A stretch of DNA of 35,335 bases from a virus. The notes under the pieces are model-generated. The model worked only from the letters and a program-made list of their open reading frames with translations. It did no database searches and had not been told where the DNA came from. A program made the translations under genes and the position numbers. Positions 1,264-34,095 of the stretch are shown piece after piece. Numbering within the stretch: the stretch's first letter is position 1; each line of letters begins with the position of its first letter. The stretch spans positions 1 through 35,335 of IMG/VR virus record IMGVR_UViG_3300042987_000108; one strand, written 5' to 3'.

Positions 1264-1414
1264 TAACAGTTGGTGGCATCAGCAGGATTTGGAACTACAG
1301 CAGCAAGAAGAACAAGAACGCATTGAACGATGCAACGCTGCACTCGCTGAACTGAACAGCATCATCAACGAAGAACTGACGAAGGTGGGTTATGAGCGAA
1401 TTACTAAAAATTAA
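1250..1414 (+). CDS. Small Gln/Glu-rich helical protein
   Basis: 54 residues from the ATG at 1250, which has a strong GAGGAGG site eight bases upstream; the longer frame from 1205 starts inside the preceding gene without a site. Residues 14-30 are almost all Gln and Glu, predicting a charged helix or coiled coil. The end overlaps the Sak-like gene by 23 bases, suggesting translational coupling. No family is recognised. Confidence 0.65.
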   Translation: MENDDNSWWHQQDLELQQQEEQERIERCNAALAELNSIINEELTKVGYERITKN

Positions 1415-1928
1415 CGTCAACGACCACGTTGAGAAGAAAGGCAATTTGTCTTACTTGTCGTGGGCGTGGGCATGGGCCGAGGTGCTAAAGATTGACCCGG
1501 CTGCCCGTTGGACGGCGCACGAATACAGCGACCGCCCTGCCATGTATCTGCCCGACGGCACTGCAATGGTGAAGGTCAGCGTAGAGATAAAGGGCGACAT
1601 TAAAACGTGCGTGTTGCCGGTGATGGACAATCGTAACCGAGCAATTCAGAACCCCGATGCGTTCTCAGTCAACACCGCGATCATGCGGTGCCTTGCCAAA
1701 TGCATCGCCATGTTCGGCCTTGGCTTGTACATCTACGCGGGCGAGGATTCGCCTGAGGGTGCTGCACCGCAAGTTGATCCTGATCTTGTTGCGCTGATTG
1801 CAGGTTCTGCATCGCTGGACGAACTGACCAAGTTGTTTAAGCGGCTCACCAAGGAACAGCGCATGACGCACATTGATGCGTTTACCGCCCGCAAGAAGGA
1901 ACTGAACCCGCCACCGGAGGCCGCGTGA
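1392..1928 (+). CDS. Sak-type single-strand annealing protein (DUF1071)
   Basis: 178 residues. The N-terminus contains NVNDHVEKKGNLSYLSWAWA followed by the WAEVLKIDP pattern, the hallmark of the DUF1071/SSAP_Sak family of phage recombinases. This family anneals complementary single strands during recombination-dependent replication and repair. A conserved NTAIMRCLAKCIAMFGLGLYIYAGED stretch (about residues 95-120) is also family-typical. The C-terminal third is variable and probably contacts partners. It overlaps by four bases (GTGA) with the YqaJ-type exonuclease that follows, making a classic two-component phage recombination pair in which the exonuclease produces the overhangs that this protein pairs. 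Confidence 0.88.
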   Translation: MSELLKINVNDHVEKKGNLSYLSWAWAWAEVLKIDPAARWTAHEYSDRPAMYLPDGTAMVKVSVEIKGDIKTCVLPVMDNRNRAIQNPDAFSVNTAIMRCLAKCIAMFGLGLYIYAGEDSPEGAAPQVDPDLVALIAGSASLDELTKLFKRLTKEQRMTHIDAFTARKKELNPPPEAA

Positions 1929-2575
1929 AAAAGGCAACTGTAACCGACCGATTACAGGGCGGCACGATGGAGCAGCGCACCGAGGAATGGTTCGCGGCCC
2001 GCCTTGGCAAAGTAACCGCCAGCCGCGTGGCTGACGTAGTAGCCAAGACCAAGAGCGGGTATTCGGCAAGCCGTGAAAATTACATGGCGCAGTTGATCTG
2101 CGAACGCCTTACGGGAAAGCCGACCGAGATGTTCAGCAATGCCGCGATGGAATGGGGTACGCAGACCGAGCCGCAAGCACGGGCCGCGTATAGCGCCAAG
2201 ACAGGCGAGTTGGTGGAGGAGGTGGGGTTTATCCCGCACCACGACATTCCCGGCTCTGGCGCATCCCCCGACGGTTTCGTGGGCGACGGGTTGATAGAGA
2301 TTAAATGCCCGAATACGGCTACGCATTTGGAGTACGTGCTGTCTGGTAAACCTCCTGAAAAGTACGTCACGCAAATGCAATGGCAGATGGCGGTGACGGG
2401 TGCGCCGTGGTGTGACTTTGTGTCATACGACCCACGCTTGCCGGAGCATTTGCAATTGCTAATTGTGCGTATGGCGCGTGACGCCACGCGCATCGCGGAG
2501 TTAGAGGCCGAGGTGCAGTGGTTCCTCGGTGAGTTGGAAAATAAAGTTGAGCAACTACAAAAGGTGAAATTGTGA
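1925..2575 (+). CDS. YqaJ-type viral recombinase (exonuclease)
   Basis: 216 residues from the GTG at 1925, chosen for its GGAGG site and its GTGA overlap with the upstream stop; an internal ATG at 1967 (MEQRTEEW) is an alternative. The family pattern is clear: QRTEEWFAARLGKVTASR near the start, D116 in GASPDG, the catalytic E125-x-K127 in IEIKCP, and the YVTQMQWQM helix at about 148-156. These are the PD-(D/E)XK residues of lambda-exonuclease-like nucleases, which chew double-stranded ends to give 3' overhangs. It sits directly after the Sak-like annealing protein. Confidence 0.92.
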   Translation: MKKATVTDRLQGGTMEQRTEEWFAARLGKVTASRVADVVAKTKSGYSASRENYMAQLICERLTGKPTEMFSNAAMEWGTQTEPQARAAYSAKTGELVEEVGFIPHHDIPGSGASPDGFVGDGLIEIKCPNTATHLEYVLSGKPPEKYVTQMQWQMAVTGAPWCDFVSYDPRLPEHLQLLIVRMARDATRIAELEAEVQWFLGELENKVEQLQKVKL

Positions 2576-2853: not shown

Positions 2854-3307
2854 CTTTGAGGCAAGGTTTCGGGCGAGTCGCCCTGCTGAAATCGTAGTGG
2901 CGACTTACTTGCTAAACCTTGGGCATACGGTGACGCTCCCGCAGCGTCGGCTGCGTGCCAACTTTGCCGACCGCAAAGAATACGCCGATAAGGGCGACAT
3001 TTATGCCAGTGATAAGCGCATAGAGGTCAAGCATCTAAAGCGTGACTTTGAGTTTGGCGAGTGGCCGTTTGAGACGGCAACCATCTGCGCCAAGGCATCG
3101 TTTGACAACGCGCACCCTCGGCCTGATTGGTACTTTCTGGTCAATCACAGCATGACGGTGGCTGCTTTAGTGGACGTTAATACGACGTTTGCCGATTGGA
3201 TTGTGCGCAAACAGTTAGACCCGGCTCGGGGTTACGATTACGACGTTTACGCCGTGACGCCCGAGTATTTAGCATGGCGTTACATAGACTTTGAGGAAAA
3301 ACTGTGA
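2831..3307 (+). CDS. PD-(D/E)XK nuclease-like protein
   Basis: 158 residues, overlapping the SSB-like gene by 23 bases. A candidate active site is D56 (KGDIY) with E65-x-K67 (IEVKHLK), the spacing of PD-(D/E)XK nucleases, and a possible acidic residue E20 in an upstream helix. The remainder has short strands and a conserved-looking DWYFLVNHS segment after the core, as in restriction-type folds. It lies within the recombination set, so a role in processing DNA intermediates or branched DNA is reasonable. No specific family name can be given. Confidence 0.6.
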   Translation: MTLTPHSDFEARFRASRPAEIVVATYLLNLGHTVTLPQRRLRANFADRKEYADKGDIYASDKRIEVKHLKRDFEFGEWPFETATICAKASFDNAHPRPDWYFLVNHSMTVAALVDVNTTFADWIVRKQLDPARGYDYDVYAVTPEYLAWRYIDFEEKL

Positions 3308-5215: not shown

Positions 5216-5409
5216 TTGATAACGACAGCCCGCCGGGGGCGTGGAAAGCCGAGTTACAGCGTGCGCCGTGGGGATACGGTCAAAGTCAGGCGCAAAAGGT
5301 ACAATTTGCGCTGGCCGAAATCCGCCAGCGTGGAATGTGGGAGATTGCCGAGGTGCTGGAGCGTGAAATTAAGACGTTACAGGCCGAGGTTGCGCATCTT
5401 AGCCGTTGA
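5212..5409 (+). CDS. Small helical protein before the tRNA
   Basis: 65 residues from GTG 5212. Residues about 28-63 form a long predicted helix or coiled coil (QKVQFALAEIRQRGMWEIAE, then EREIKTLQAEVAHL). The TGA stop at 5407-5409 is also the first three bases of the tRNA-Gln, so the gene runs directly into the tRNA. This is the last protein gene of the rightward unit. No family is recognised. Confidence 0.65.
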   Translation: MIDNDSPPGAWKAELQRAPWGYGQSQAQKVQFALAEIRQRGMWEIAEVLEREIKTLQAEVAHLSR

Positions 5410-5481
5410 GGGATCGACTAACTGGCAAGTCACCAGACTTTGACTCTGGCAATGGTAGTTCGACCCTACCTCCCTCAGCCA
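5407..5481 (+). tRNA. tRNA-Gln (anticodon TTG)
   Basis: A complete cloverleaf can be drawn. The acceptor TGAGGGA (5407-5413) pairs with TCCCTCA (5471-5477), followed by G and an encoded CCA. The D arm is GACT...AGTC with GG in its loop, the anticodon arm CCAGA CTTTGAC TCTGG shows TTG at the anticodon position, and the T arm is GGTAG TTCGACC CTACC. Total 75 bases. The anticodon reads CAA (and by wobble CAG), so it charges glutamine. Its first three bases double as the stop codon of the upstream gene, so processing of the tRNA would cut the end of that message. Confidence 0.95.
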
Positions 5482-15004: not shown

Positions 15005-15320
15005 CTCTGTACTGCCCTCCTTGCGGCGTCGTCATGCCGGGGGAGGCGGGCTTGCGCGGCCCGTTACCGAGTTGTGGCGATGAATAACCGCGAGAGCCGG
15101 TGATTCCGGGCTGCGGGGTGTTCATTGGGCCGTTAAAATTCATGGCTTGCGGTGCGATGCCTGCGGCGGTGTTGGGCGTAGCGCCGCTATACGCAAGTGA
15201 CGGACGCATCGCCGGCATACCGTCCCGCTGACCCGCTGGGGCGTTAAGCGATGAATTACGCTCCTGCAACGCTAACATTTGCGCCATGCGTTGCGGTCGG
15301 TCTGGTGTAAATCCGTTCAT
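14982..15320 (-). CDS. Small Pro/Gly-rich virion-type protein, paralogue of its neighbour
   Basis: 112 residues. The first 20 residues (PDRPQRMAQMLALQERNS) match those of the 84-residue protein encoded directly upstream (TDPQRLAEMLAMQEANQ), so the two look like a tandem duplication. The rest is low complexity, rich in Pro, Gly, Asn, Gln and Met, and probably unstructured. Such proteins may pack or travel with ejection proteins. Overlaps of 4 and 23 bases with its neighbours support translation. Confidence 0.65.
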   Translation of the reverse strand: MNGFTPDRPQRMAQMLALQERNSSLNAPAGQRDGMPAMRPSLAYSGATPNTAAGIAPQAMNFNGPMNTPQPGITGSRGYSSPQLGNGPRKPASPGMTTPQGGQYRGDFDANL

Positions 15321-15571
15321 GCTAACCCCGTCGTATCTGTGGGTGTGGTGGTGTCGTAGGTGTTCTTGCCAATCTTTTGCGCTTTGCGGTTCATGGCTGT
15401 GCGGCGCATCTTTTCTAAATCCATCGGGTTAATGAAGTTAGGGCTTCCCGATGACATGGACGGTAACGCGCCGTAGTCAGTACTAACTTTTTGATTGGCT
15501 TCTTGCATTGCCAGCATTTCTGCGAGGCGTTGCGGGTCGGTACGATCTTGCTGGGCTTTGTAGTACTTCAT
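15317..15571 (-). CDS. Small virion-type protein, paralogue of its neighbour
   Basis: 84 residues. A short helix (DPQRLAEMLAMQEANQ) resembles that of the next gene, followed by a polar stretch and a basic helix (LEKMRRTAMNRKAQKIGK), then a Thr-rich tail. Both its ends overlap neighbours by four bases. It may act with the 1024-residue protein encoded just upstream. Function is unknown. Confidence 0.65.
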   Translation of the reverse strand: MKYYKAQQDRTDPQRLAEMLAMQEANQKVSTDYGALPSMSSGSPNFINPMDLEKMRRTAMNRKAQKIGKNTYDTTTPTDTTGLA

Positions 15572-18500
15572 AACAGCAACCCATACTTAACCATGTTGTA
15601 ACCGCTTGGGTGGGTCACGACCGCTTCCGGCTTGACCCTCTGCACTTCGTCGGCCATCACGCCGCGCTGGCGTTCGCCAAAGATGTCGTACTCATAGATG
15701 CCGATGCCAAGCGGGTGCGTGCCGACGCGCACGATGTTGGACTTTAAGCGGCGGTCGGACATGATTGCCGCGCTGCCAAGGCTTCCCGCCAATCCGTACA
15801 GACCGCTTGCGTTGCTGGCGGCTTGGTTGGCTTGGATGCCGTAACGCTGCATTGCGGCAGCGTCTTGCGCTTGGGCGGCTTGCAGATACGGAGTCGCAGC
15901 GACTTGCACGCCGCTGTAGCCTTGGAACTGCGGCATCTGTACTTGCGATCCCGATAGCAACGCTGAAATCTCGTTGAGCGGCTGATTGCGTAGTGCCAAT
16001 TGCTGCTGAAGCGCCTGCTGTACCGCTTGGTTGCCAAACGTCGCTGCACCAACCATTTGGTTGTACTGCTGTTGCTGTGCGGCGTTTTGCGCAGCCTGTT
16101 GCGACATTGCCATTTGGTAGTTTTGCAGCATGGCGGCGTTGTACAAACCTTGGATGTCCATGGCTTGCCCAAACCGCTGCTGCTGCGCGGCATTGGCGGC
16201 GGCTTGTTGTGCCATTGCTTGCTGGTACGCTTGTGCTTGTGCGCGGTTTGTGAATTCGGCTTGTGCGCCCGCTTGTTGAAAACCTTGTTGTTGACGCGCC
16301 AGATTGGCTTGGTAGGCGGCCAATGCTTGCGCTTGGTTCTGCGCAAGGGCTTGGTTCTGTAGTTCTTGAGCGGTCACTTGCTGACCAAACTGCTGTGCGC
16401 CCGCTTGGTTCTGCATCTGTGCGGCGGCTTGAGCCTGCGCAAAGTTCTGTGCCATGGCTTGATTAGCGGCTTGCTGGGCTTGTTGACCCATACCAAACTG
16501 CGCTAACAATGCCTCGCGGTTAAACTCACCCGCACCCATCTGCTGCGCGTAACCCTGTTGCTGCGCTTGGTTCGCGGCTTGTTGAGCGGCGAGGGCTTGC
16601 TGGAAGTTCTGCGCAGCGGCTTGGTTTTGTGCTTGCTGGGCTTGCTGTGCTTGTGCAAAGTTTTGCGCGATGGCTTGGTTTTGTGTTTGTTGGGCTTGTT
16701 GGGCCATGCCAAACTGCTGGCCGGCAAGTTCCGCACCGACTTGTGTTCCTGTGACCGCTTGGCCAAAACGCTGCGCTTGCGCGGCTCGGGCTGCTTCATC
16801 AGCCGCCATGGCTTGCTGGAAGTTCTGAGCAATGGCCGCGTTTATTGCTTGCTGCGCTTGCTGACCCGTCTGGAACGACGCCAGTTGCGCTTCTCTGCCA
16901 AACTCGCCTGCGGCCAACCGCTGTGCAAATTGTTGCGCTTGGGCTTGGTTTGCGAACTGCCCGCTTTGCAACGCCAATTGCGTGTTTTGTGCAATGGCTT
17001 GGTTGCGTGCAGCCTCTGATTGCATTCCTGCGCCAAATCGCGCAAGTTCTGTTTGCTGCCCAAACTCTGCACCGGCAAGGCGCTGCTGGAATGCTTGTTG
17101 TTGAGCGGCGTTGGCAGCGGCTTGCGTGGCAAGGGCTTGCTGCACGTTTTGACCAAGGCCGACGTTATATAACCCTGCCTGTTCCATGCCCGCCCCAAAC
17201 CCTTGGAGGGCGGCTTGATTGGCAAACATGGCGCGAGATTGTTGTTCGGCAAAACCTTGCTGGCGTGCCGCTTGATCTAACGCAATGCCTTGCGCTGCGG
17301 CTTGCAAGATAAGGTCGTTTTCCTTTTGTGCTTGCGCTGACATGGCCGCGTTGAACGCTTCACCACCCGGCACAAGTCCTTGGTTAATCAATTGGGTGTA
17401 AAGTTGTTGGCGTTCGCCCTGAAGTTGAGGGCCAAGGCGCGACATAATCGCTTGTTGCGCCGTTGTGCCTGCGCTGATCGGTGCTGCGGCTAATCCTTGT
17501 ACGTCAATCTGACGCTGTAACTCTGGCCCCTCTACAAACTGTTGGGCATAACCAAACTGACCTTGGCCCGGTGCGCGTTGCACGCGTCCCACGCCAAAGG
17601 TGTTCAAGCCTCCTAATTGCGGGCCGGCGACCGTGCCGCCTTGGGCTTGTCCAAACTGTCCTACACCGCCTTGAATGCCCATTAAACCGGACGTATCCAA
17701 ACCGCCAAACTGCACGCCCTGCGGGCCGCCTGCGGCTGCGCCAAACTGACCGCCCGTTACCCCGGCTTGAGCCGTGCCAACACCGGCCAAGTTAAGACCG
17801 CCAACCTGCGGTGCGGCAGGGCCGCCGCCCGCAAGGCCGTATAAGCCCGCGCTAGGGCCGCCTTGGGCTAACCCGTACTGACCCGCGCCCGGTGCGCCTT
17901 GAATGGCACCAAAGGCCGCAGGGTTGATTTGTTGCAGGGTTTGCGCCTGCGGGCCACCGCCCGCCATGCCGAACTGACCGGCAGCGGGGCCGGTTGACAC
18001 CCCGGGTAACGCACCTTGCAAGCCTTGGGCGGTGCCGGTCGGTGCATATTGCCCCGGTAACTGCCCTGCGCCAAATTGGGTAAGGGGGCCGTATTGGCCG
18101 GCTTGGGGTGGCCCTACGATCTCGCCTTGCGGGCCGATTCCTGTGGCTTGTCCGTAAGCCGCAGCGTTCGGGGCTTGCGCTACTTGACCGTACCCGCCGA
18201 GGGTCGTTTGGATTTGCGGCAATTGCGCTTGGAAATCTTGACCGAGGAACTGCGACAAGTCGCCGATCTCTCGCAGCCCAAGATTTGCCATGGCCTGCTC
18301 GGCTTGCTGCTGCGTGGCAAAGATGTCCTTGGCAGGGCCAACCAACTCTTGCCGAATTGTCGGCTGTTCAACGTAGGTCGTGAACTGTTCGCGGGATGGT
18401 TCTGGGCCGGTATACCCATCGGGAGCCTGTGACCAATAATCCTGCATCGCCTTGTCATAGGCTTCTTGATTAAATTGCGGCTGTTTTGTCCACTGCACCG

Positions 18501-18642
18501 TCTGCTGCGCCGTCGGCGTGTAGACGTTTGGGTTGGACATATACGCCGATTGCTTGGCCGCCTCCAAATTGGCTTGGCCTTGCAACATGGCAATTTTGGA
18601 ATAATCAGGTGTTGGCGGTGGTGCCGGCGATCTTTTGCCCAT
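15568..18642 (-). CDS. Giant Gly/Gln/Ala-rich virion protein with S74-like C-terminus
   Basis: 1024 residues. The start (GKRSPAPPPTPDYSKIAMLQ, then NVYTPTAQQTVQW) matches a class of podovirus proteins that often end in an S74 domain. Residues about 160-390 are Gly/Pro/Gln-rich repeats (QYGLAQGGPSAG style), and about 455-885 are helical Gln/Ala repeats (QAANQAMAQNFAQ). The last 64 residues carry an S74-like chaperone with SDRRLKSNI, then GVMADEVQRVKPEAV and GYNMVKYGLLL, with no C-terminal coiled coil. It probably sits in the virion as an ejection or tail-associated protein. In 180 codons at 16201-16740 I count 62 glutamines, 40 as CAA and 22 as CAG. Confidence 0.8.
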   Translation of the reverse strand: MGKRSPAPPPTPDYSKIAMLQGQANLEAAKQSAYMSNPNVYTPTAQQTVQWTKQPQFNQEAYDKAMQDYWSQAPDGYTGPEPSREQFTTYVEQPTIRQELVGPAKDIFATQQQAEQAMANLGLREIGDLSQFLGQDFQAQLPQIQTTLGGYGQVAQAPNAAAYGQATGIGPQGEIVGPPQAGQYGPLTQFGAGQLPGQYAPTGTAQGLQGALPGVSTGPAAGQFGMAGGGPQAQTLQQINPAAFGAIQGAPGAGQYGLAQGGPSAGLYGLAGGGPAAPQVGGLNLAGVGTAQAGVTGGQFGAAAGGPQGVQFGGLDTSGLMGIQGGVGQFGQAQGGTVAGPQLGGLNTFGVGRVQRAPGQGQFGYAQQFVEGPELQRQIDVQGLAAAPISAGTTAQQAIMSRLGPQLQGERQQLYTQLINQGLVPGGEAFNAAMSAQAQKENDLILQAAAQGIALDQAARQQGFAEQQSRAMFANQAALQGFGAGMEQAGLYNVGLGQNVQQALATQAAANAAQQQAFQQRLAGAEFGQQTELARFGAGMQSEAARNQAIAQNTQLALQSGQFANQAQAQQFAQRLAAGEFGREAQLASFQTGQQAQQAINAAIAQNFQQAMAADEAARAAQAQRFGQAVTGTQVGAELAGQQFGMAQQAQQTQNQAIAQNFAQAQQAQQAQNQAAAQNFQQALAAQQAANQAQQQGYAQQMGAGEFNREALLAQFGMGQQAQQAANQAMAQNFAQAQAAAQMQNQAGAQQFGQQVTAQELQNQALAQNQAQALAAYQANLARQQQGFQQAGAQAEFTNRAQAQAYQQAMAQQAAANAAQQQRFGQAMDIQGLYNAAMLQNYQMAMSQQAAQNAAQQQQYNQMVGAATFGNQAVQQALQQQLALRNQPLNEISALLSGSQVQMPQFQGYSGVQVAATPYLQAAQAQDAAAMQRYGIQANQAASNASGLYGLAGSLGSAAIMSDRRLKSNIVRVGTHPLGIGIYEYDIFGERQRGVMADEVQRVKPEAVVTHPSGYNMVKYGLLL
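15990..17280 (-). repeat. Gln/Ala-rich helical repeats
   Basis: About 430 residues built from imperfect units of the form QxAxNQAxAQNFxQAxxAQ, often with FGxG or EFGRE spacers every 25-30 residues. The composition is about one third Gln and one third Ala, suggesting long helices or coiled coils. DNA repeats are degenerate. Confidence 0.75.
17470..18165 (-). repeat. Gly/Gln/Pro-rich repeats
   Basis: Residues about 160-390 of the 1024-residue protein repeat short units such as GQFGxAxGGPQA and LGGLNxxGVG. They predict a flexible or fibrous region without charged residues, distinct from the Gln/Ala part. Confidence 0.7.
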
Positions 18643-22077: not shown

Positions 22078-22440
22078 TTAAACGCGTTCACCGTTTAGGC
22101 TGTACCATTGGGTGTTGGACACAGCAAAAAACAGGGTTGTATGGTTTTGGGGGATGCCGGCAAATGTCGTCTGATTGATCGTTGACCCGCTTTGCGGATA
22201 AACCTTCAAACTATGGGCGCCGCTATTTGCAACAATAATCACAGCACCCATTTCGGTCGGAGGTAATTTTACACCGCTATTGTTTGGCGTGGTGTCTACC
22301 GAATTAAATACGAACGTTAGTTGCGTGGCATCACCGGCTGACGTTCCCGCCGCCACAATGTCATCTTTGCCGTCACCGCAAATGCTAACGGTAGAAAGTT
22401 GGCTCATGCCGCTGCCGAGGACGCGTGAGGGGATGGCCAT
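22078..22440 (-). CDS. Small beta-rich structural protein
   Basis: 120 residues with alternating strands (ATQLTFVFNSVDTTP, AVIIVANSGAHSLKVYPQSG, TTLFFAVSNTQWYSL). The composition and gene position, between DUF115 and adaptor-side genes, fit a decoration or minor head protein. The start shares an A with the stop of the upstream gene (TAATG). No specific family is recognised. Confidence 0.7.
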   Translation of the reverse strand: MAIPSRVLGSGMSQLSTVSICGDGKDDIVAAGTSAGDATQLTFVFNSVDTTPNNSGVKLPPTEMGAVIIVANSGAHSLKVYPQSGSTINQTTFAGIPQNHTTLFFAVSNTQWYSLNGERV

Positions 22441-23216
22441 TACGCCGCCTTTGCCGTGTCGCGGCGACAGCGCATGATTTCAGCAATCAATCCGGGGCCG
22501 ACAACCTCCATCTTTAGGTCGGGCATGACCTCAAACAATTTCTGGAATTCGTTGGCTTGCTGGGCCATGGCGGCATTGGCGTTGAACTTCTTGCCCTCTG
22601 GGCCGCCTACCCAGATGTCTACGGTCAGACCCGGCAACTCGCCCGTAAACCGTTTGCGTCCGTCGGGGCTATTGCAGGAGTCGTAGCCGTACAGGAAAAA
22701 CTTACGGAATCCTAGGATGTAGCCAATATTGATAGCACGCAGACCCGAGGTCGTGCCGCCACCAATGGCTAATTTGCCTTCGCCCATCGCATCCATCTCT
22801 GGGCCTTCAGCCCATGAGTGCCACAGCATCACGCGCTTACCTTGAAGGTAGTCAAACGTGGAGGGCGGGCAGCGCGAGGCCACAAGGTACAGCGTGCGGT
22901 CGTTCTTGTGCTTGATACCGTTGGTGCGGTCGCGGGGGTCAAGGTTGACCCAAAAATCTGGCTCTACGCCGTTCTCTACCAAAAAGTCATGCGCACCTTT
23001 AATCGCACCGATGACATGACCGGCCTTGCGGTGCGCTTTGATCTCGTCAATGTAGTCGGGCATAGACCACCCGCTCGCCACCAGCACCATGTTGCCATCG
23101 TGCGTGATGGGAGCGAGGGTCAGTTCTGGCAGACCACGGGCAAGCGCGGAACGTATGTTAGAACATAGTTCTTCAGGCGTTCCCGCCGCTTGTACCGTGA
23201 TCTCCAGAGGTTTCAT
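22440..23216 (-). CDS. DUF115-like (MptE-like) protein, possible glycosyltransferase
   Basis: 258 residues. The features VLVASGWSMPDYIDEIKAHR, GAIKGAHDFLVENGVEPDF, and GGTTSGLRAINIGYILGFRK then FFLYGYDSC match the DUF115/MptE-like fold, which includes flagellin-glycosylation Maf proteins and a pterin kinase. In phages these are often found near capsid genes. A role in sugar addition is possible; the substrate is unknown. Its neighbours are a capsid-side beta protein and the decoration-like protein, so a virion-modifying function is a reasonable hypothesis. Confidence 0.75.
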   Translation of the reverse strand: MKPLEITVQAAGTPEELCSNIRSALARGLPELTLAPITHDGNMVLVASGWSMPDYIDEIKAHRKAGHVIGAIKGAHDFLVENGVEPDFWVNLDPRDRTNGIKHKNDRTLYLVASRCPPSTFDYLQGKRVMLWHSWAEGPEMDAMGEGKLAIGGGTTSGLRAINIGYILGFRKFFLYGYDSCNSPDGRKRFTGELPGLTVDIWVGGPEGKKFNANAAMAQQANEFQKLFEVMPDLKMEVVGPGLIAEIMRCRRDTAKAA

Positions 23217-26130: not shown

Positions 26131-28145
26131 TGCGTAAAGGGTGGCTCAGGCATCGTCTTGCCCATCTGGGCAATGATGAGTTTAGTTTGGGCGTCAATGT
26201 CAGCCTTGTACTTGGCTGCTGCCTGTTGCGATTGCAGTTCGGCGGCTTTGAGACGCGCTTCAAAGTCCATCTTTTGCTGTTCCAGCGCCAACTTGGCTTG
26301 GTTGCGCATCTGTTCCATTTGCAAGGCGTACTGCATTTCGGCTTGTTTAAGCGCCGACTGCATCTGCATCTTGGACGATTCCAGTTGGCCCTTCGCTTGC
26401 AACTCGGCTTGCTTGCCTTGCATTTCTGGGTTTTGACGCATTTGTGCGCTTTGCACGATCTGCTGGAGCGTGGCGTCAATCTGACCTTCAATCGGACGGG
26501 CTGCCTTGAACGCCTGCATACCAAAGCGCAACAGTTCCATCATCATCGGCACCATCTCTGGGCTGGCTTGTCCGACCGGCAACGCTTGGGCAAGGAAGCC
26601 ACCGAATGCTTGCAGGAACTGCATACGGTCTTGCTTGTTCTGGTTCTCATCCAGCATCACAAGAGAGTCAGCGGCGATGTCTACGCGGAAGTTCCGTAGC
26701 GGCTTGTTACGCAATAGTTCCAACGCCTGCGGGATCAGTTGCTGGTCGGCGGGCGTCATCTGCTGTGCGGCAGCGTACGCAAGGATCGTCTCGGGCTGAT
26801 ACTTCATGCACATAACCTGTGCCTTCAGGCGTATCAGTTCCGAGGCAAAGAGGGCAACGTCCTCTTGCATAGAACGCAGTCTTAGCCCTGCGTACTGCCC
26901 TTTGATTTGCTGCGCGGTCGCCGTTTCGCTGGCGTAGGTCGTCCCTCGGATGATGTCCGAGATGCCCGTGATTTCGTAGATTTGGCTCTTGATGTCTTCT
27001 CTAGCGCGGTAGCACTGGAGTAGCGCATTTGCGAGTGTGTCAAGGGGGAGGAGGTCAATACTACCTTTAAGACCGCCCTTTTCACTGAATGCCATCCATT
27101 TATCAACCGGGATAAGAGCATTGTTATCGCCCTCCGTCATCAGTCGTTGCAGCGCGGGTTGGCTGGAGTCATAGACGCCGCGCACGCGCAGTGCTTTGAC
27201 CAAACCATCAATGCGGTCGGACAGGATGTCCAACTCCATGGCCTGATCTTGATACAGCACAAAGTCGGGGACAGGTACAAGCGTGTCGCTCGTCGTCGTT
27301 GCATACAGAGGCTTCGGGCAAGGGAAGAAGCCCTCAAGGCCAAGCGGGTCATCACGCTCGTCAATGATTTCTGGCATTCCCTTGCTAAACCAATAGACCT
27401 TTTCGGTTTCTTTATCCCAGAGTTCGCAAATCTTTGCGCGGTTGTAGAGACGCTTGTTCTCGTTATAAGCGTTGAGTGGCTCGGGGCCGCTGTCTAGCGG
27501 TATCTTGCGTGCTACGTCCTCGCCAAAGCGTTCTACGAGAGCCTCACGGGTCATGTAGACCCAGCGCCACACCTGCCCGACTTCTTCCCAAGTTCGGGCA
27601 GGCGAGTGTCCAAAGTCGCGCCAATGGACGTAATCCACGGGTGCGCATTCGTACTCAATACGCTCTAAGTTCGGCGGTGCGCCTTCGCCCTGCTCAATGT
27701 CAGGGGTGATAGATACGCCGTCGTCCTCTATGCCAATCGGCGCAGTGTGCGGTTCATAACGCACCCATGCCGTGCCGCGTCCACCGAGGAACCGATCCTC
27801 TACGGCATACGCCATCGTGGAGCGGTAATCGGGGTAATGCTCAATTTCAAAGTCAATGGCACGCTCTACCAACTGTGCGGCCACGCGGCCCACGGGGTCG
27901 TTGTCACCAAAGCGGCGGCTAATGTCGGCTTTCGGCAGTTTGGCGTAAACAGCAGGCTTCAGGGTTTGTACGTTTGACCACAGAATGTTGAACTTGGCCG
28001 ATTCGGTCAGCGTCTGCCCACGCGTATCGTCGCGGTAACGCTTGATGATCTTCTTCGTCCGCGCCATCCATTTGGCAAACTCGTTGTCGTACTGCCCGAT
28101 GATGCGCAGATAGCGGTCAAGTTTTGGCTGTAACAGTCCGTCCAT
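26127..28145 (-). CDS. Portal protein
   Basis: 672 residues, a size typical of large P22-like podovirus portals. It has FAKWMARTKKIIKRYRDDTR and FNILWSNVQTLKPAVYAKLP near the N-terminus, VEDRFLGGRGTAWVRYEP with the usual portal clip region, FPCPKPLYATTTSDTLVPVP, and GTTYASETATAQQIKGQYAG. The last 100 residues are a Gln/Lys/Ala-rich helix that may form the barrel. The protein makes the 12-subunit DNA channel used for packaging and ejection. It overlaps neighbours by one or four bases. Confidence 0.93.
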   Translation of the reverse strand: MDGLLQPKLDRYLRIIGQYDNEFAKWMARTKKIIKRYRDDTRGQTLTESAKFNILWSNVQTLKPAVYAKLPKADISRRFGDNDPVGRVAAQLVERAIDFEIEHYPDYRSTMAYAVEDRFLGGRGTAWVRYEPHTAPIGIEDDGVSITPDIEQGEGAPPNLERIEYECAPVDYVHWRDFGHSPARTWEEVGQVWRWVYMTREALVERFGEDVARKIPLDSGPEPLNAYNENKRLYNRAKICELWDKETEKVYWFSKGMPEIIDERDDPLGLEGFFPCPKPLYATTTSDTLVPVPDFVLYQDQAMELDILSDRIDGLVKALRVRGVYDSSQPALQRLMTEGDNNALIPVDKWMAFSEKGGLKGSIDLLPLDTLANALLQCYRAREDIKSQIYEITGISDIIRGTTYASETATAQQIKGQYAGLRLRSMQEDVALFASELIRLKAQVMCMKYQPETILAYAAAQQMTPADQQLIPQALELLRNKPLRNFRVDIAADSLVMLDENQNKQDRMQFLQAFGGFLAQALPVGQASPEMVPMMMELLRFGMQAFKAARPIEGQIDATLQQIVQSAQMRQNPEMQGKQAELQAKGQLESSKMQMQSALKQAEMQYALQMEQMRNQAKLALEQQKMDFEARLKAAELQSQQAAAKYKADIDAQTKLIIAQMGKTMPEPPFTQ

Positions 28146-28438
28146 TACTTGCCCTCGTTTCGTTTGCTAATGGCTTTGGCCTTTGATTTGGCCTCTGCCT
28201 TACTACCAGCGCCCCATGCTCTCAGAGCAAGTGCAAGGCGCGTCGGTTCGCCGTTCTTTTCCATCGGCCCCGGCATATTGCCCATGCGGGCGAGGAACGA
28301 TGCGCGGCGTGGGTTGTTGCCTGACTTAACGGGAGGCTTCAGCGTCCCGCCTGTCTCGGCTTTGTACGAGGCGCGACCCTTTGCGTTTAGCCCGCCTTTC
28401 GGGTTCTTGCCCTCGGATCGTTGCCACGCTGCTGTCAT
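28145..28438 (-). CDS. DUF6321-like basic protein
   Basis: 97 residues. TAAWQRSEGKNPKGGLNAKG and PVKSGNNPRRASFLARMGNM are distinctive of a small phage protein family (DUF6321, from memory). It is strongly basic and has a Lys/Ala-rich helical end. It is placed between the terminase and portal genes. Function unknown; binding to DNA or a portal is possible. Confidence 0.75.
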   Translation of the reverse strand: MTAAWQRSEGKNPKGGLNAKGRASYKAETGGTLKPPVKSGNNPRRASFLARMGNMPGPMEKNGEPTRLALALRAWGAGSKAEAKSKAKAISKRNEGK

Positions 28439-28593: not shown

Positions 28594-28886
28594 TAGGCGT
28601 ACGTGCTAAAGAGGCCGACGACTGACATGGACGCGTTTTGGCTGCACGTTGCCGTGATCTGGCCCGTCGTGGCGACGTTAAGTTCCACCGAGTACACACC
28701 GGCTGCGGTCGTGGCGGGGAACGACACCAACGTGGTGCTGCCATCCTGCACCAAGCACGTTGCCTCTGTGTTGCTGGCGACATTGACCACCACGCGGTGC
28801 AGATATGCGCCCGGGCTGCCAAAGGTCGTGGTGGAGGTCGCGCCGACGGCGACGTAATTCATGCGAGTTGGCTGTTGAACGCTCAT
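28593..28886 (-). CDS. Small beta-rich structural-type protein
   Basis: 97 residues rich in Thr, Val, Ala and Ser (HRVVVNVASNTEATCLVQDG, VYSVELNVATTGQI). No charged helix is present and beta structure dominates. Location between the large terminase and portal-side genes suggests a minor head or decoration protein. Its stop TAA shares a base with the next start. Confidence 0.72.
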   Translation of the reverse strand: MSVQQPTRMNYVAVGATSTTTFGSPGAYLHRVVVNVASNTEATCLVQDGSTTLVSFPATTAAGVYSVELNVATTGQITATCSQNASMSVVGLFSTYA

Positions 28887-30223
28887 ATCCTTGCTCTCCT
28901 GCTAACCGTGCGGTCGTGAACGGCCCACATATCGTTTAGCGTGACCTTGTTTTCAGGCCCAACCAGCAGCGGTTTTACCTCTACCGATGGGGGCTTGTCA
29001 GAAATCTCCTGCCATGATACCGCAAGCATACGGAATGCGTCACTAGGGTGGCTAGTCCAATCGTGACGCGGGGACTGCCGAAACGCTTTCTTGTCCTCGT
29101 CGTACTCGCGCTGATACTGGCGTAATGCCTCTATGCCATCGCGGCATTTCTCGCCGTCAAACCAAACTCGCGGCAATGTCATGCGTACGGCTTGGATGCC
29201 GTTTTGCACGCCGATGTCAGGAACGACAGCAAGGTTAGCGGTGCCAAGGTATGCGGCTAATTGCTCAATGATGCTGCGCCCTGTTTGAAGGCTCTTTGCC
29301 CGTGCGTCGTGCGGCAGGAAGTGTTTGACGTACTTGTAGGGCTTACTCTCTACGTGTTCGGCAATGTCGTGGATGTCCGCACCCGAAATGGCAAAGTAGT
29401 CAATGACGCGTATTTCCCCGCGTGACGGCTGGTAAAACCACACCGCCGTGTCGTCGCGGTAACCTAAGTCAAACGCCGTGTAAGTCGGCAGGTTCGGGTC
29501 GTACGGCACGCGGGTGATACGGCCCTGATCCTGCGCTTGACGCATCTCTGTGCCGTAAAAAGCGCCGAGGATGGCTGCTTCAAATGAGCATTCGTACTCC
29601 TGTAGGTACTGATCCTCGGCCAACTGCGCCTTGGCTGCCGCGAGTTCGCTTGGCGGCAATAGCCCACTGGTGGAGGCGGGGAGGCGCAACAGGAACCATT
29701 CATTTGGGATGCGTTGTGCGGTTTCGTAAATTTCCCAGAATTGGTTTTTGCCTTTCGGTGTACCGCCGAACACAGCCCAACCCTGCTTGTCTGATAGTGC
29801 AGGGCGTATGACGTTGCCAAATGCGCTGGGCTTAAAGTCACCGAATTCGTCCATGTAAACCCCCGAAAACCCCAGCCCGCGCATTGCGTCTGCGGTTTCG
29901 GCTCCGTAAAGGCGTATTTGGCTGTTGTTAATGAGCGTTATCGTCAGTTCTTGCTCATTGACGCTGCTGATGATGGGTTGGGCAAACTCTTTGAAGTATT
30001 GCCATGCCACGGCCTTGGCCTGCGACCGATATGGCGCAACGTATCCGAATAGCCCGTATGGGCCTTGGTAGGTGATAGCGGCACGGATCATGTCGTTGAC
30101 GGCGGCGACCGTCTTACCTGCGCGTCTATGTGCGACAAGGCACGCCCAGCGGTGCGTCCTGTTGTGAAAGGGCAGGAACGCCTTGCGCGGGCGATAGGGC
30201 AGGATTATTCGGGAGCCATCCAT
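28883..30223 (-). CDS. Terminase large subunit
   Basis: 446 residues. ATPase motifs are Walker A AHRRAGKT (31-38), Walker B VYMDE (122-126) and the coupling motif GGTPKGKN (153-160). The nuclease domain has D252 (FDLGYRDD), HDA at 305-307 and D395 (HPSDAF), matching an RNase H-like cleavage site. It packages DNA into the procapsid and cuts the concatemer. It overlaps the small subunit gene by 19 bases. Packaging type cannot be told from sequence alone. Confidence 0.95.
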   Translation of the reverse strand: MDGSRIILPYRPRKAFLPFHNRTHRWACLVAHRRAGKTVAAVNDMIRAAITYQGPYGLFGYVAPYRSQAKAVAWQYFKEFAQPIISSVNEQELTITLINNSQIRLYGAETADAMRGLGFSGVYMDEFGDFKPSAFGNVIRPALSDKQGWAVFGGTPKGKNQFWEIYETAQRIPNEWFLLRLPASTSGLLPPSELAAAKAQLAEDQYLQEYECSFEAAILGAFYGTEMRQAQDQGRITRVPYDPNLPTYTAFDLGYRDDTAVWFYQPSRGEIRVIDYFAISGADIHDIAEHVESKPYKYVKHFLPHDARAKSLQTGRSIIEQLAAYLGTANLAVVPDIGVQNGIQAVRMTLPRVWFDGEKCRDGIEALRQYQREYDEDKKAFRQSPRHDWTSHPSDAFRMLAVSWQEISDKPPSVEVKPLLVGPENKVTLNDMWAVHDRTVSRRARI

Positions 30224-30480
30224 CCGATCTGTACCTTGACCGGGCCGTTGTCTTGTCCTGTGATCTCTTGGCGGGCGAGTTTAGGAACGTGGTATTCCAA
30301 CAGGGTGCTGAAAGCATCAAAGGCAGCCTGTGGCCCCTTCTCCTCTGCGATCTGATCTAGCCACCCTTGTAGTCGGTCTGCATTGCCGTCCACGAATGCG
30401 GCTATCGCCTCTCTAGCGGCTTGTGTGGCCTTATTAGGCGTACCTGCCTGCCTACCGCCTGTTTTTTTACCTTTTGCCAT
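30205..30480 (-). CDS. Terminase small subunit-like protein
   Basis: 91 residues from the ATG at 30480 (MAKGKKTGGRQAG). A GTG at 30519 would add 13 residues and would overlap the upstream stop in the GTGA pattern seen elsewhere, so the true start is open. KKTGGRQAGTPNKATQAARE is a common N-terminus of small proteins encoded next to large terminases. A helical region (AAFDAFSTLLEYHVPKLARQ) follows. It presumably recognises the packaging site; it lacks an obvious helix-turn-helix, so the call rests partly on position. Confidence 0.7.
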   Translation of the reverse strand: MAKGKKTGGRQAGTPNKATQAAREAIAAFVDGNADRLQGWLDQIAEEKGPQAAFDAFSTLLEYHVPKLARQEITGQDNGPVKVQIGWMAPE

Positions 30481-30515
30481 CGTTTTCGGTCTACTTTGGA
30501 TCGCCTGTGGGACAA

Positions 30516-31553
30516 TCACTCACGCTTGAGAATCTTAACTTTCTTTTCCTCGCCGGGGAACACAACAAAGTTGCGTGTACCGCTGCCGCCTTGGCCTCGG
30601 CTGCCTGCGTCTGCATATTTTATGCCCGGTATGCCAGATTTCCGCATTTGTTCGGCAAACTTGGCTTCATCCGTAAAGCCAAACATAGATTTGAAATCTT
30701 TCCATGTCATGTCATTACCAGATGCGTATTTGATGGCGTAATCACCAAAGGCTTTACGCAACGCCTGTTTGACAGGTTCAGGTTGACTGCCAATCAATGC
30801 GTCGTAATCAACCATCCGATCTACCATTTCGTCAGGTAGGTCGGCGGTGTAGAGGTTGCCGCCTACTTCTACCTTTGCGCCTTTACCACGCCACTCTCGC
30901 GCTAGTTCCATTGCTTTTGCAAAATTTTCGTTACGAGGGCCATATTTGCCGCCGAGTCTTTCTATCGCTTTTGAAAATGGGTCTTCATATTGCCCGCCAT
31001 GCGCCGAAACAATGGCATCAACCGCTATTGTTTCAGGGTCATTTCTGGCTTCAGGGGTTCGTTTAGCAGCAATCCTGCGCCCATCTACTGAGATAACATC
31101 TTCGGCTAACGCTCGCCTATAAATTTCTGCGGTGCTTGGTTTTTCGGCAAGGTAAATGCCATGCCCATATGCCTGTGCGCCTTCGCCCGTGCCAATCTTG
31201 CTGGCGTCAAATTCCTCAAATCGGTGCGGGCTACCGTGGTAAACGTCAATTTCGCGCATTACGGGGTCAAAACCTTTTAACGCCCCAATTAGTTTGCCGA
31301 GCGGCAGCGCAGAGGCTCCTGCCATGGCCATGCCGGCTGTGTCGTCAGCCCGTCTTGCGCGTTCAAAGTCACGGGCGGCGAGGGCTTGCCCCACACCCGG
31401 CACGAGGCTCCCGCCCATCTCCAGCGCCATGTCTATGGCGTCGGTGTCCTGCGGCTGGTCTAGGCTGACCATGCGCTCATAACGGCGTTTCAGGTCAGCC
31501 TTGTCACCAAGGTACTTGAGTGCGGCAGCGACTTGTTCGCGGCGTACCGGCAT
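30516..31553 (-). CDS. Putative ADP-ribosyltransferase (ART-PolyVal-like)
   Basis: 345 residues. Residues about 1-95 are helical with a Gly/Ala-rich hydrophobic part (GGSLVPGVGQALA, AMAGASALPLGKLIGALKG). The rest matches the ART-like domain of phage polyvalent proteins: Y105-H106-G107-S108 (VYHGSPHRFEEFD), a GIYLAE-containing strand (about 132-137) followed by STAEIY, and, after an insert of about 140 residues, PGIKYADAGSRG and NFVVFP. These correspond to the H and Y of H-Y-type ADP-ribosyltransferases; the third catalytic position is not the usual Glu. It probably uses NAD to modify host proteins, and could be packaged. It stands between the Pro-rich gene and the terminases. Confidence 0.72.
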   Translation of the reverse strand: MPVRREQVAAALKYLGDKADLKRRYERMVSLDQPQDTDAIDMALEMGGSLVPGVGQALAARDFERARRADDTAGMAMAGASALPLGKLIGALKGFDPVMREIDVYHGSPHRFEEFDASKIGTGEGAQAYGHGIYLAEKPSTAEIYRRALAEDVISVDGRRIAAKRTPEARNDPETIAVDAIVSAHGGQYEDPFSKAIERLGGKYGPRNENFAKAMELAREWRGKGAKVEVGGNLYTADLPDEMVDRMVDYDALIGSQPEPVKQALRKAFGDYAIKYASGNDMTWKDFKSMFGFTDEAKFAEQMRKSGIPGIKYADAGSRGQGGSGTRNFVVFPGEEKKVKILKRE

Positions 31554-31556
31554 AAC

Positions 31557-33023
31557 TCACCCCAACCAATCGTAAAGGTCTGACTGACCCATGAGTGCCT
31601 CGCGGATCGTGCGTGGCGTTCTGCGGCGCTTGCGCTCTTGCTGAAGTGCTTGAGCCAGCATCATGTTCCCCGAAACGCTATCGGTTGGCATGGAGGTGCT
31701 GGGTGCTGGCGTGGTCGGTGGATTGTAAACCGGCCCAACGTAGAACGGCGGCAATGTCGGGGTAGGCGTGTTCGGCGGTGGCGTATAAACGTCAATCGGC
31801 GGGGTCGGGCTATCTACCGGCCCTTGGTCAATCGGCGGCATCTCTACCGGAATCGGTGTAGTACCGGGCTTTGTCGGCCCCGTGTAAGGCGGTGGTTCAT
31901 TGTCGTCAATTAAACCCGGTGGGTTAAACACGGGATTGAACGGCGGCGCCCCACCGACATACGGCGGGGGTGGCACAAAGGGCGGTGGAGGCGGGGGCGG
32001 TGGGATGAATAATTCGGGCGGCAGCGTTGGCATCACCGGAATACCGACGAACGGCGGCACGGGGGGCGGCGGTGCAGGAGGTGGTGGGGGTGTAAGTTGT
32101 GGCGGTTCTGGCAGCGGCGCGATGATGTCAGGCGGCGGCGGTGGCGGCAGCGTTTGACCCGGCGGTAGCAGCAGGCTTGGGTTAAAAATGGGGTTAATCG
32201 GTAGTCCCGGCCCGGTGTACGGCGGTGGCGCGACAGATTCCGCAGGCGGTTGGTAGGGCGGCGTGAACGGTGGCTCGTAAGGCGGTGTAATCGGTTCTTG
32301 GTACACCGGGGGTTGAAACACGGGCGGTTCAAAAATCGGTTCTGGTTCCGTATACACCGGGGGCTGGAAGGGCGGTTGGAATACCGGCTCTTGATAAAAG
32401 GGAGGTTGATACACCGGCTCTTGGTATGGCGGCGGTTCTTGAAACGTGGGCGGTTCCACCAATACCGGCTCATCGCGTGGGGTAAACACGGGCGGCTCTG
32501 CTACCGGCTGAGTCGGCGGCACAAAAGGCGGTGTGAAAATAGGTTCTTGGTATACGGGTGGTTGATATACCGGCTCGGGTTCAACGTATGCCGGCGGTTG
32601 ATACGCAGGCGGTTGATATGTTGGTTCTTGATACGCCGGTTCTTGATAAATAGGGGGCTGAAATACCGGTTCCTGATATGTAGGAGGCTGAAAAACAGGC
32701 TCTTGGTAAGCCGGTGGTTGAAATACGGGTTCTTGGAACTGCGGCGCTGGCTCTGGGTACGCCGGCATCATGGCGGGCGGCGCTTCGGGCATGACGGCGG
32801 GCATCATGGCCGGCATCGGTTCTGAGTAACTCGGCATAGGAGCCGGTTGCGGGATATACGCAGCCTCTGGGGCAATCATCGGTTCGGGTGCCACCATGAC
32901 CGGCGCCATCTCGGGGAGCATCGTCGGCGGGGCAAACATTCCTGCGTTAAACGGCAGCGTGTCCTGCGGTGCGTTTTGCAACGCATACATCTGCATTAAC
33001 TGTTGGAATTCCTCCTCCGTCAC
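31557..33023 (-). CDS. Proline-rich repeat protein
   Basis: 488 residues with a short acidic helical start (TEEEFQQLMQMYALQNA), a Pro/Met/Ala-rich linker, a repeat region at about residues 96-260, a Pro-rich part with runs of up to eight prolines at about 260-430, and a basic end (QQERKRRRTPRTIREAL) followed by LYDWLG. There are eight YQEP and two FQEP units, three in tandem with a ten-residue period. It has no signal peptide or membrane segment. The product resembles eukaryotic-like extensin or elastomer sequences and is probably an extended polyproline II rod, perhaps a virion spacer or fibre. It overlaps the ferritin-like gene by four bases. Function is unknown. Confidence 0.75.
   Translation of the reverse strand: MTEEEFQQLMQMYALQNAPQDTLPFNAGMFAPPTMLPEMAPVMVAPEPMIAPEAAYIPQPAPMPSYSEPMPAMMPAVMPEAPPAMMPAYPEPAPQFQEPVFQPPAYQEPVFQPPTYQEPVFQPPIYQEPAYQEPTYQPPAYQPPAYVEPEPVYQPPVYQEPIFTPPFVPPTQPVAEPPVFTPRDEPVLVEPPTFQEPPPYQEPVYQPPFYQEPVFQPPFQPPVYTEPEPIFEPPVFQPPVYQEPITPPYEPPFTPPYQPPAESVAPPPYTGPGLPINPIFNPSLLLPPGQTLPPPPPPDIIAPLPEPPQLTPPPPPAPPPPVPPFVGIPVMPTLPPELFIPPPPPPPPFVPPPPYVGGAPPFNPVFNPPGLIDDNEPPPYTGPTKPGTTPIPVEMPPIDQGPVDSPTPPIDVYTPPPNTPTPTLPPFYVGPVYNPPTTPAPSTSMPTDSVSGNMMLAQALQQERKRRRTPRTIREALMGQSDLYDWLG
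32244..32738 (-). repeat. YQEPVFQPP-type repeats
   Basis: Residues 96-260 of the Pro-rich protein. Units (Y/F)QEPVFQPP recur, perfectly at 106-114, 116-124 and 210-218, with variants PAYVEPEPVYQPP and PPVYTEPEPIF. The DNA copies share TTGATA/TTGGTA and ACCGGTT-like blocks but differ at third positions, so the array is old or selected at protein level. Confidence 0.8.
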
Positions 33024-33385
33024 TTAAAGCGTTCCAACTTGTAGAGCAAGGCCGCAATCTCGCCCACGATCTCGTCAATGATGTTCTGGAGGTCGGTGTC
33101 TTTAGGCAGGTCTTTGCGGGTGCCTTTCACAAAGGTCAGCAGACTGTCGGCGTACTTGGCCGCATCCGTCTGCACCTTAAACCCTTCGGGATAGTCAGCA
33201 AGAGGGATGATGCCGTAATGCCCTTGGTAGGCTTCCGCGTATTTGTCGGCCAAGTCCACGATGTTCTCGTAATAGTGGCCGAGTGCCTTGTGGGCAGCGT
33301 AACTGGCCGTTTGCAGATGCAGAAAATGCGTGGCCGTTGCCGAATGCAACAACACCCCAACGAATTCAGCCGCGTCTTTGTGCAT
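33020..33385 (-). CDS. Ferritin/Dps-like helical protein (DUF5856 type)
   Basis: 121 residues from the ATG at 33385, which has a good GGAGG site seven bases upstream; the longer frame to 33430 is rejected. Long helices with HSATATHFLHLQTASYAAHK, then ALGHYYENIVDLADKYAEAY, resemble the first helices of Dps/ferritin-like phage proteins (DUF5856). Metal ligands would be from His and Glu in these helices, but the full diiron set is not clear. If similar to Dps it could bind DNA or protect against oxidative damage; this is inference. It is the first gene of the long leftward unit. Confidence 0.65.
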   Translation of the reverse strand: MHKDAAEFVGVLLHSATATHFLHLQTASYAAHKALGHYYENIVDLADKYAEAYQGHYGIIPLADYPEGFKVQTDAAKYADSLLTFVKGTRKDLPKDTDLQNIIDEIVGEIAALLYKLERFK

Positions 33386-33432
33386 AGAGCCTCCGCGTGA
33401 CGAGCGTAGCACACGGTGGTATGTTTGCAAGT

Positions 33433-34095
33433 ATGTCTACGTTCGTGTTTTTTCATGTGGGCGATGATCTGGAGTGGCCGACTCGGATGGTTGCTTCCCT
33501 CCGCGCTTTCAACCCCGGTGCCAAAATCATCCAAGTGACGGATCGTGTGACCCCGACCGTTGAGGGTGTCACATGGGCGTATCCGACCGAGGGCGACCGG
33601 GAGTTTCTGATGCACTGGCGTCTTGCCGCCTTTGCGCGATTAGGGCTTGATGAGCCTGCCCTATACCTTGACACCGATATGGTTGTGAAAGCCCCCATAA
33701 AGCCGTCCACGCTCGTTCTGGATGAGGTTTGCGTGCCGTGTCGGCGGTCATTCAACCGGGATGCGCTGTTTAACCCCCGTCAGCGTGGTTTGGACTTTTC
33801 AGAGTACACGGGTAAGACGCTGGATGAAGTGTACCCGTTTGTCGGTTGTGCGACAGTGACCCGTGATGCAGGGCCGTGGGAGGACATGGCCGAGATGTTT
33901 GAGGCGTTACCCGAGAAATTCTGGCGGTGGTACGGCGATCAAGAGGTTTTGCGAGAGTATTGCCGGCAGACCGAGGTGACGCTGCCTGAGTATCATTTTG
34001 CTTGTCTGCCCGAGTACCTGCCCCAGCATCCTCACCCGGCCATCATCCACTACAAGGGTGCGCGTAAAGCCCTTATCGGTACTGCTCCGGTTTGA
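33433..34095 (+). CDS. Glycosyltransferase (GT-A, DxD)
   Basis: 220 residues from ATG 33433 (MSTFVFFHVG); starts at 33421 and GTG 33397 are also open and no candidate has a well-spaced ribosome site. The D80-x-D82 motif is in ALYLDTDMVVKAPI. HWRLAAFARLGLDEP before it and CRQTEVTLPEYHFACLPEY toward the end fit small phage glycosyltransferases. The gene is transcribed rightward between leftward genes, and its 3' end overlaps the VRR-NUC gene by 23 bases in convergent orientation. Its acceptor is unknown. Confidence 0.75.
   Translation: MSTFVFFHVGDDLEWPTRMVASLRAFNPGAKIIQVTDRVTPTVEGVTWAYPTEGDREFLMHWRLAAFARLGLDEPALYLDTDMVVKAPIKPSTLVLDEVCVPCRRSFNRDALFNPRQRGLDFSEYTGKTLDEVYPFVGCATVTRDAGPWEDMAEMFEALPEKFWRWYGDQEVLREYCRQTEVTLPEYHFACLPEYLPQHPHPAIIHYKGARKALIGTAPV

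What the first reader, a model, noticed from the sequence alone, without database searches (positions are those of the whole stretch)
30516..31553. Late-operon ADP-ribosyltransferase-like protein
YHGSPH, GIYLAE and NFVVFP match the ART part of polyvalent proteins, here as a separate 345-residue protein with a hydrophobic helical N-terminus. The usual catalytic Glu is not apparent. Encoded right before the terminase genes, it might be injected with DNA as in T4 Alt, or serve as a late host-control or anti-defence factor.
Basis: partly seen in the sequence, partly recalled or inferred. Interest (0 to 1): 0.6.

Follow-up and report, generated by a model that had tools for sequence, protein, structure and literature searches.

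The report
Phage effector gene with swappable domains
The gene encodes a phage enzyme that probably tags host molecules with ADP-ribose, and it is one of at least a dozen interchangeable effectors that near-identical phages carry at the same spot behind a shared front end, like swappable warheads, although packaging and enzyme activity are still unproven.

Summary
The AlphaFold2 model of residues 97-345 has an ADP-ribosyltransferase (ART) fold. The best solved matches are a cyanophage pre-ejectosome protein and diphtheria toxin. H106 and Y134 are conserved; Asn328 sits where PARPs have Glu. ART-PolyVal is matched below Pfam's cut-off.

In relatives the slot between a DUF5856 gene and the terminase genes is polymorphic. 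A conserved ~97-residue N-module, with no Pfam family, carries about 13 C-terminal types: ART-PolyVal, other ART-like domains, LPD23 with HELQH, Zeta toxin, GNAT, ParB-like and unknowns. Five contigs with identical TerL carry five different C-termini, with sharp DNA breakpoints. Within the ART, two cassettes between conserved blocks reassort independently.

Best reading: a late-made, virion-packaged, injected mono-ART effector from a polymorphic cargo locus, resembling T4's internal-protein hotspot but with polyvalent-protein enzyme domains. Fold, selection and polymorphism are shown; packaging, injection, activity and target are inferred. New variant of a known kind.

The parts
30516..31553 (-). 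ART effector gene, 345 aa (P0001)
31497..31553 (-). N-terminal short motif, residues 1-19 (MPVRREQVAAALKYLGDKA), type xRxx[LIV]AxALxY, shared by slot proteins whose remaining N-terminus differs
31263..31553 (-). N-module, residues 1-97; found in relatives with about 13 different C-terminal domains; invariant S30 L31 P52 A59 R61 D62 R65 R68 D71 A78 P84
31119..31250 (-). ART block I, residues 102-145 (strand 1 with H106, strand 2 with Y134)
30855..31118 (-). hypervariable, exchangeable cassette A, residues 146-233
30783..30854 (-). ART block II, residues 234-257 (strand 3)
30636..30782 (-). hypervariable, exchangeable cassette B, residues 258-306
30519..30635 (-). ART block III, residues 307-345 (strands 4-6; D315, N328, E335)
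30205..30519 (-). putative small terminase gene; downstream border of the slot
   Evidence: position before TerL
28883..30223 (-). terminase large subunit
33020..33430 (-). DUF5856 gene; upstream border of the slot
31557..33023 (-). proline-rich 488-aa protein between DUF5856 and the ART; among the loci fetched found only in contigs of the window's own type
1392..1928 (+). Sak-type single-strand annealing protein; candidate agent of the domain exchange (inference)
   Evidence: E=1.9e-44
1925..2575 (+). YqaJ-type recombinase exonuclease, partner of Sak (inference)
   Evidence: E=9.9e-29

Best explanation
The gene encodes an ART-PolyVal-like mono-ADP-ribosyltransferase effector held in a polymorphic effector slot of the phage's late, packaging-gene cluster. 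The N-module, beginning with a short helical motif, most likely loads the protein into the procapsid or ejection apparatus. The C-terminal ART is then delivered with the DNA and modifies a host molecule early in infection, either to take over the host or to blunt a defence. Phages replace the C-terminal domain while keeping the N-module, and within the ART they exchange two cassettes (A and B) around a constant NAD-binding core, which probably retargets the enzyme. The phage's Sak/YqaJ annealing recombinase and the short conserved DNA blocks are a plausible route for the exchange. SHOWN: ART fold by model, conserved H106/Y134, purifying selection, fixed slot, domain replacement, cassette reassortment. 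INFERRED: packaging, injection, transferase activity, target, recombination agent.
For: Profile: ART-PolyVal E=2e-5, weak matches to further phage families. Fold: AF2 strands at 102-108, 133-136, 233-239, 310-314, 327-331, 340-344. VIA-align best matches: cyanophage A4 pre-ejectosome Z 10.1, diphtheria toxin 9.0, ParT 8.3, MbcT 7.3, then RES, Cholix, ExoA and tankyrase at 6.7-7.0, all over about 96-345. BFVD matches, several named ART-PolyVal-like, E to 1e-17. Conservation in 98 sequences, a few of which lack the ART: H106 93, Y134 94, D315 91, N328 91. Slot: N-module with 13 C-terminal clusters, nearly all between DUF5856 and TerS/TerL where flanks are present. Window versus L089: flanking DNA 92-94%, N-module 84%, C-termini unrelated. 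Five contigs with identical TerL carry five different C-termini, N-module DNA 94-97% identical, breakpoints at one place. Cassettes: of 33 pairs with A at least 70% identical, 27 have B under 35%; of 40 pairs sharing B, 34 have A under 35%. Delivery context: SLT+ART protein L071; ART beside portal, internal virion or head genes in phiGT1, vir555 and Tunturi_5. Published context: packaging-gene neighbourhoods for phage ARTs (PMC9503650).
Against: No virion proteomics and no NAD assay. The Pfam match is below the gathering score and covers only the first third of the domain. The plain Foldseek search of the PDB gave nothing under E=0.1, and Z values of 8-10 are only modestly above what unrelated models reach. 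The canonical catalytic Glu is Asn. The N-module model is low confidence (pLDDT 64) and shows no fold that explains packaging.
Confidence: 0.6

Rival explanations
1. A late, unpackaged host-control or morphogenesis factor: the ART acts in the dying host, for example on RNA polymerase or the translation machinery late in infection, and the N-module tethers it to the packaging machinery or membrane.
For: Gene position beside the terminase genes. T4 ModA and ModB are ARTs deployed later in the infection cycle (PMC9503650). No virion data exist.
Against: Fast domain turnover looks like an arms race with variable host systems rather than a fixed late function. Relatives are fused to SLT or lie among ejection-protein genes.
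Confidence: 0.2
2. A pseudoenzyme: an ART fold kept for binding (NAD, ADP-ribose or a protein partner) without transferase activity.
For: Asn328 at the PARP Glu position. The acidic residue after strand 5 sits behind a two-residue PG insertion in the window's clade.
Against: H106, Y134, D315 and N328 are kept in more than 90% of 98 diverse sequences. Mono-ART PARPs with H-Y-I or H-Y-L are listed as active (table in PMC7955679).
Confidence: 0.13
3. A toxin-antitoxin or polymorphic-toxin module used against other cells or phages, as in bacterial competition.
For: A constant N-terminus with variable toxin-like C-termini, including Zeta toxin. One N-module gives a non-significant PT-TG pre-toxin match, E=0.065.
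Against: No immunity or antitoxin gene follows: TerS starts within 0-300 bases of most slot proteins. No secretion domain found.
Confidence: 0.04

Closest known systems
Polyvalent proteins and their ART-PolyVal domain (Iyer et al. 2017, PMC5512222)
   Same: ART domain family, partner domains (GNAT, LPD23, HExxH-type peptidase, ParB), late/virion gene context; some relatives are true multidomain proteins (L071 SLT+ART, L022 ART+GNAT).
   Different: The window protein has one catalytic domain. Diversity is generated by swapping single domains behind a shared N-module at one locus rather than by joining many domains in one chain.
T4 internal proteins Ip1-3 hotspot (PMC12373910, PMC3012670)
   Same: Unrelated injected anti-defence proteins share only an N-terminal leader and sit in a variable hotspot.
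   Different: Here the shared N-module is about 97 residues, the cargo consists of enzyme domains, the phage is a small podovirus-like virus, and packaging is not shown.
T4 Alt
   Same: ART made late; proposed delivery with the DNA.
   Different: Alt belongs to the R-S-E clade; this one has H-Y with Asn at the third site.
MuF-fused phage ARTs and polymorphic MuF toxins
   Same: Constant head-associated part plus variable effector C-terminus.
   Different: No MuF domain found; the N-module matches no Pfam family.
Cyanophage A4 pre-ejectosome protein (PDB 9k3a chain B, residues 1418-1602)
   Same: ART-like fold (VIA Z 10.1) within a virion ejection protein.
   Different: No detectable sequence similarity; part of a protein of at least 1,600 residues.

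Membership tests
ART superfamily, H-Y clade | Split beta-sheet ART fold | tested here: met
   AF2 strand order; VIA-align Z 10.1-6.1 almost only to ARTs; note Foldseek PDB not significant
ART superfamily, H-Y clade | His in strand 1 and Tyr in strand 2 | tested here: met
   H106 93/98, Y134 94/98
ART superfamily, H-Y clade | Acidic or Gln third residue at strand 5 | tested here: inconclusive
   N328 at the PARP Glu position by strand order; D/E335 aligns with the D of wider relatives after a PG insertion; no residue-level structural alignment was available
ART superfamily, H-Y clade | NAD-dependent transferase activity | not testable with these tools
   needs an assay
ART-PolyVal (PF18760) | Score above Pfam's gathering cut-off | tested here: not met
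   25.8 bits versus 31.2; an N-module relative, L130, reaches 40.4
Polyvalent protein | Two or more disparate domains in one chain | tested here: not met
   only the ART in the window protein; met by relatives L071 and L022
T4 internal-protein system | Otherwise unrelated proteins share an N-terminal leader in one hotspot | tested here: met
   (by analogy; homology to T4 Ips is not claimed)
T4 internal-protein system | The leader directs packaging into the capsid | not testable with these tools
   needs virion proteomics or a fusion test
T4 Alt family | R-S-E active site | tested here: not met
   H106, Y134
MuF polymorphic effectors | MuF domain | tested here: not met
   no such Pfam match
Toxin-immunity polymorphic systems | Cognate immunity gene downstream | tested here: not met
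   TerS follows directly in most loci

The most novel reading that the evidence does not exclude
A two-level combinatorial weapon locus in small tailed phages: a conserved N-terminal packaging module with interchangeable enzymatic cargo at one genome slot, and inside the ART cargo a second layer in which two target-recognition cassettes are shuffled independently around a constant catalytic core, allowing rapid retargeting of an injected enzyme.
Probability: 0.45. Interest if true: 0.8.

Novelty: new variant of a known kind. Interest (0 to 1): 0.62.

Why it matters
Injected phage effectors are hard to find because they share little sequence. A constant N-module at a fixed slot gives a sequence handle for retrieving a large, mostly uncharacterised set of them, including domains with no known family. 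If the N-module is a packaging signal, it would be a cargo-loading tag for podovirus-like capsids. The cassette-shuffled ART offers a natural experiment on how ART target choice is encoded.

Tried and rejected
Sequence search of solved structures with the protein and with the 98-sequence profile: nothing relevant. Foldseek PDB: no E below 0.1. N-module alone: low-confidence helices, pLDDT 64, not searched further; no Pfam family; no match in 50,697 annotated phages. PADLOC and NCBIfam: nothing convincing. Genome contigs: one weak relative only. Short N-terminal motif elsewhere in the window: best 14.0 bits at 15317-15571 against a shuffle 95% level of 13.35, too weak to claim. Promoter/terminator scan no better than shuffles. 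The nearest annotated phage by DUF5856, MW202520, has no such effector in its slot. The phiGT1 virion mass-spectrometry table and the A4 pre-ejectosome paper could not be read. Assembly chimaera as the cause of swapping rejected: the same alleles recur in separate metagenomes (for example L089-L091, L009-L011).

Full report
What is there. The feature is a 345-codon ORF on the minus strand, 31553 to 30516. The window is a 35,335-base virus record with a podovirus-like late cluster on the minus strand: DUF5856 gene, proline-rich protein, this gene, small and large terminase, portal, coat, tail and ejection-type proteins. TerL is closest to Rhodoferax phage P26218 at 46% identity; the host is unknown. 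The gene abuts its neighbours on both sides.

Fold and family. ART-PolyVal is the best Pfam match (E=2e-5, residues 103-147) but below the curated cut-off. With an alignment of 98 sequences, AlphaFold2 gives mean pLDDT 82 and an ART-like order of strands over 97-345. VIA-align ranks ART-fold proteins almost exclusively: a cyanophage A4 pre-ejectosome chain (Z 10.1), diphtheria toxin (9.0), ParT (8.3), MbcT (7.3), Cholix, ExoA, RES and tankyrase. Foldseek alone was not significant against the PDB but found phage models, several named ART-PolyVal-like, at E down to 1e-17. So the fold assignment rests on profile, topology and the second structural look together.

Active site. H106 (93 of 98) and Y134 (94 of 98) are the H and Y of the H-Y clade; a few of the 98 rows carry other C-termini and lack the ART, so these are near-complete. 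By strand order the PARP Glu position, at the start of strand 5, is Asn328, itself conserved in 91 of 98; D315, at the end of strand 4, is in 91. Iyer et al. describe the polyvalent ARTs as H-Y-D with the Asp in strand 5 (PMC5512222). Wider relatives read NFVVFD, while the window's clade reads NFVVFPGEE, with a two-residue insertion before the acidic pair. The third catalytic residue is therefore open. Lack of Glu does not exclude mono-transfer, since human mono-ARTs carry H-Y-I or H-Y-L (PMC7955679).

The slot is polymorphic. The viral collection holds 266 relatives of the protein. Reading them showed that the first 97 residues are shared with proteins whose C-termini are unrelated. A profile of this N-module found 150 ORFs, 87 distinct, whose C-termini form 13 single-linkage clusters. 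Pfam/PHROG matches on representatives: ART-PolyVal, DUF3990-type ART-like (L116, E=7e-4), LPD23 with an HELQH motif, Zeta toxin (E=1.4e-13), GNAT, DUF7178, ParB-like, and several with no match. Nearly all lie between the DUF5856 gene and TerS/TerL where the flanks are present. A group of ART contigs (L026, L027, L029, L032, L038, L045, L047, L120) shows no such flanks and may use another site. A second N-module type also pairs with ART and with LPD23, and a second slot between TerL and portal occurs in a few contigs (L130, L156, L161, L214).

Tempo. Window versus L089: TerL 99.8-100% identical, flanking DNA 92-94%, N-module DNA 84%, C-terminus ART in one and LPD23/HELQH in the other. L130, L240, L243, L245 and L246 have identical TerL protein over the stretch compared but fall in five different C-terminal clusters; their N-module DNA is 94-97% identical, the match stops at nearly the same base (L130 1641-1650) and resumes downstream of the domain. 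Among 93 pairs with TerL at least 98% identical, 46 have unrelated C-termini and 29 more are below 70%; a few of these pairs are two slot genes of one contig.

Cassette exchange inside the ART. In 46 distinct ARTs, three blocks are about 80-87% identical on average while the segments between them average 21-22%. The blocks were found by a pattern, which inflates their identity, but reassortment does not depend on that: 27 of 33 pairs sharing cassette A have unrelated B, and 34 of 40 pairs sharing B have unrelated A. DNA comparisons show the same as short islands of 84-93% identity (45-125 bases) at blocks I and II between unrelated cassettes. The model places A as a hairpin plus helices between strands 2 and 3, and B as helices between strands 3 and 4. 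Selection on the homologous parts is purifying: dN/dS about 0.05-0.3 in the N-module, blocks and shared cassette A. The phage encodes a Sak annealing protein and a YqaJ exonuclease, a plausible engine for exchange at short homologies; that is inference.

How it most likely works. Late synthesis beside the terminase genes, no immunity gene, rapid turnover of enzymatic domains, fusion of the same ART to an SLT lytic transglycosylase in a 1615-aa protein (L071), and ARTs among portal, internal-virion or head genes in annotated phages (phiGT1, vir555, Tunturi_5) all point to a packaged, injected effector. The literature places many phage ARTs near head-packaging genes for the same reason (PMC9503650). 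T4's Ip proteins show the principle: proteins sharing only a packaging leader, in a hotspot, each blocking one defence (PMC12373910). Each step from packaging onward is untested here.

Verdict. ART-fold effector: likely. Virion-delivered: probable. The polymorphic slot and cassette shuffling are the new part. Neither was found in the literature searched, which was limited.

Noticed in passing
33433-34095 (+): Glycosyltransferase-like gene on the plus strand between minus-strand late genes; no significant Pfam match. A similar-looking ORF lies at 3304-3966 (+).
   Followed up: partly
31557-33023 (-): 488-aa proline-rich repeat protein (extensin-like composition), seen only in contigs of the window's own type; its C-terminus LAQALQQERKRRR resembles the slot N-terminal motif.
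   Followed up: partly
14982-15320 and 15317-15571 (-): Two small proteins beside the ejection-type protein start with R[LM]A[EQ]MLA[ML]QE-type motifs resembling the slot motif; only marginal against shuffles.
   Followed up: partly
28145-28438 (-): A 97-aa gene (MTAAWQRSEGKNPKGG...) sits between TerL and portal here but upstream of the effector in relatives (L013, L035, L133), so gene order around the slot shifts.
   Followed up: partly
L130 4019-4615; L161 1964-2758; L156 2708-3535: A second effector slot between the TerL/97-aa gene region and portal in some relatives.
   Followed up: partly
L007 1719-2204, L066 1161-1787, L064 6941-8143: Extra genes inserted between effector and TerL: HNH-like, GIY-YIG-like and ParB-like by eye; not tested.
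   Followed up: no
15568-18642 (-): 1024-aa Gln/Ala/Gly-repeat virion protein whose C-terminus (SDRRLKSNI) looks like an S74-type chaperone; PHROG ejection/structural match.
   Followed up: no
22440-23216 (-): MptE-like (pterin diphosphokinase-like) domain, E=7e-15, inside the structural gene cluster.
   Followed up: no
5407-5481 (+): tRNA-Gln (TTG) near the boundary between plus-strand and minus-strand gene sets.
   Followed up: no
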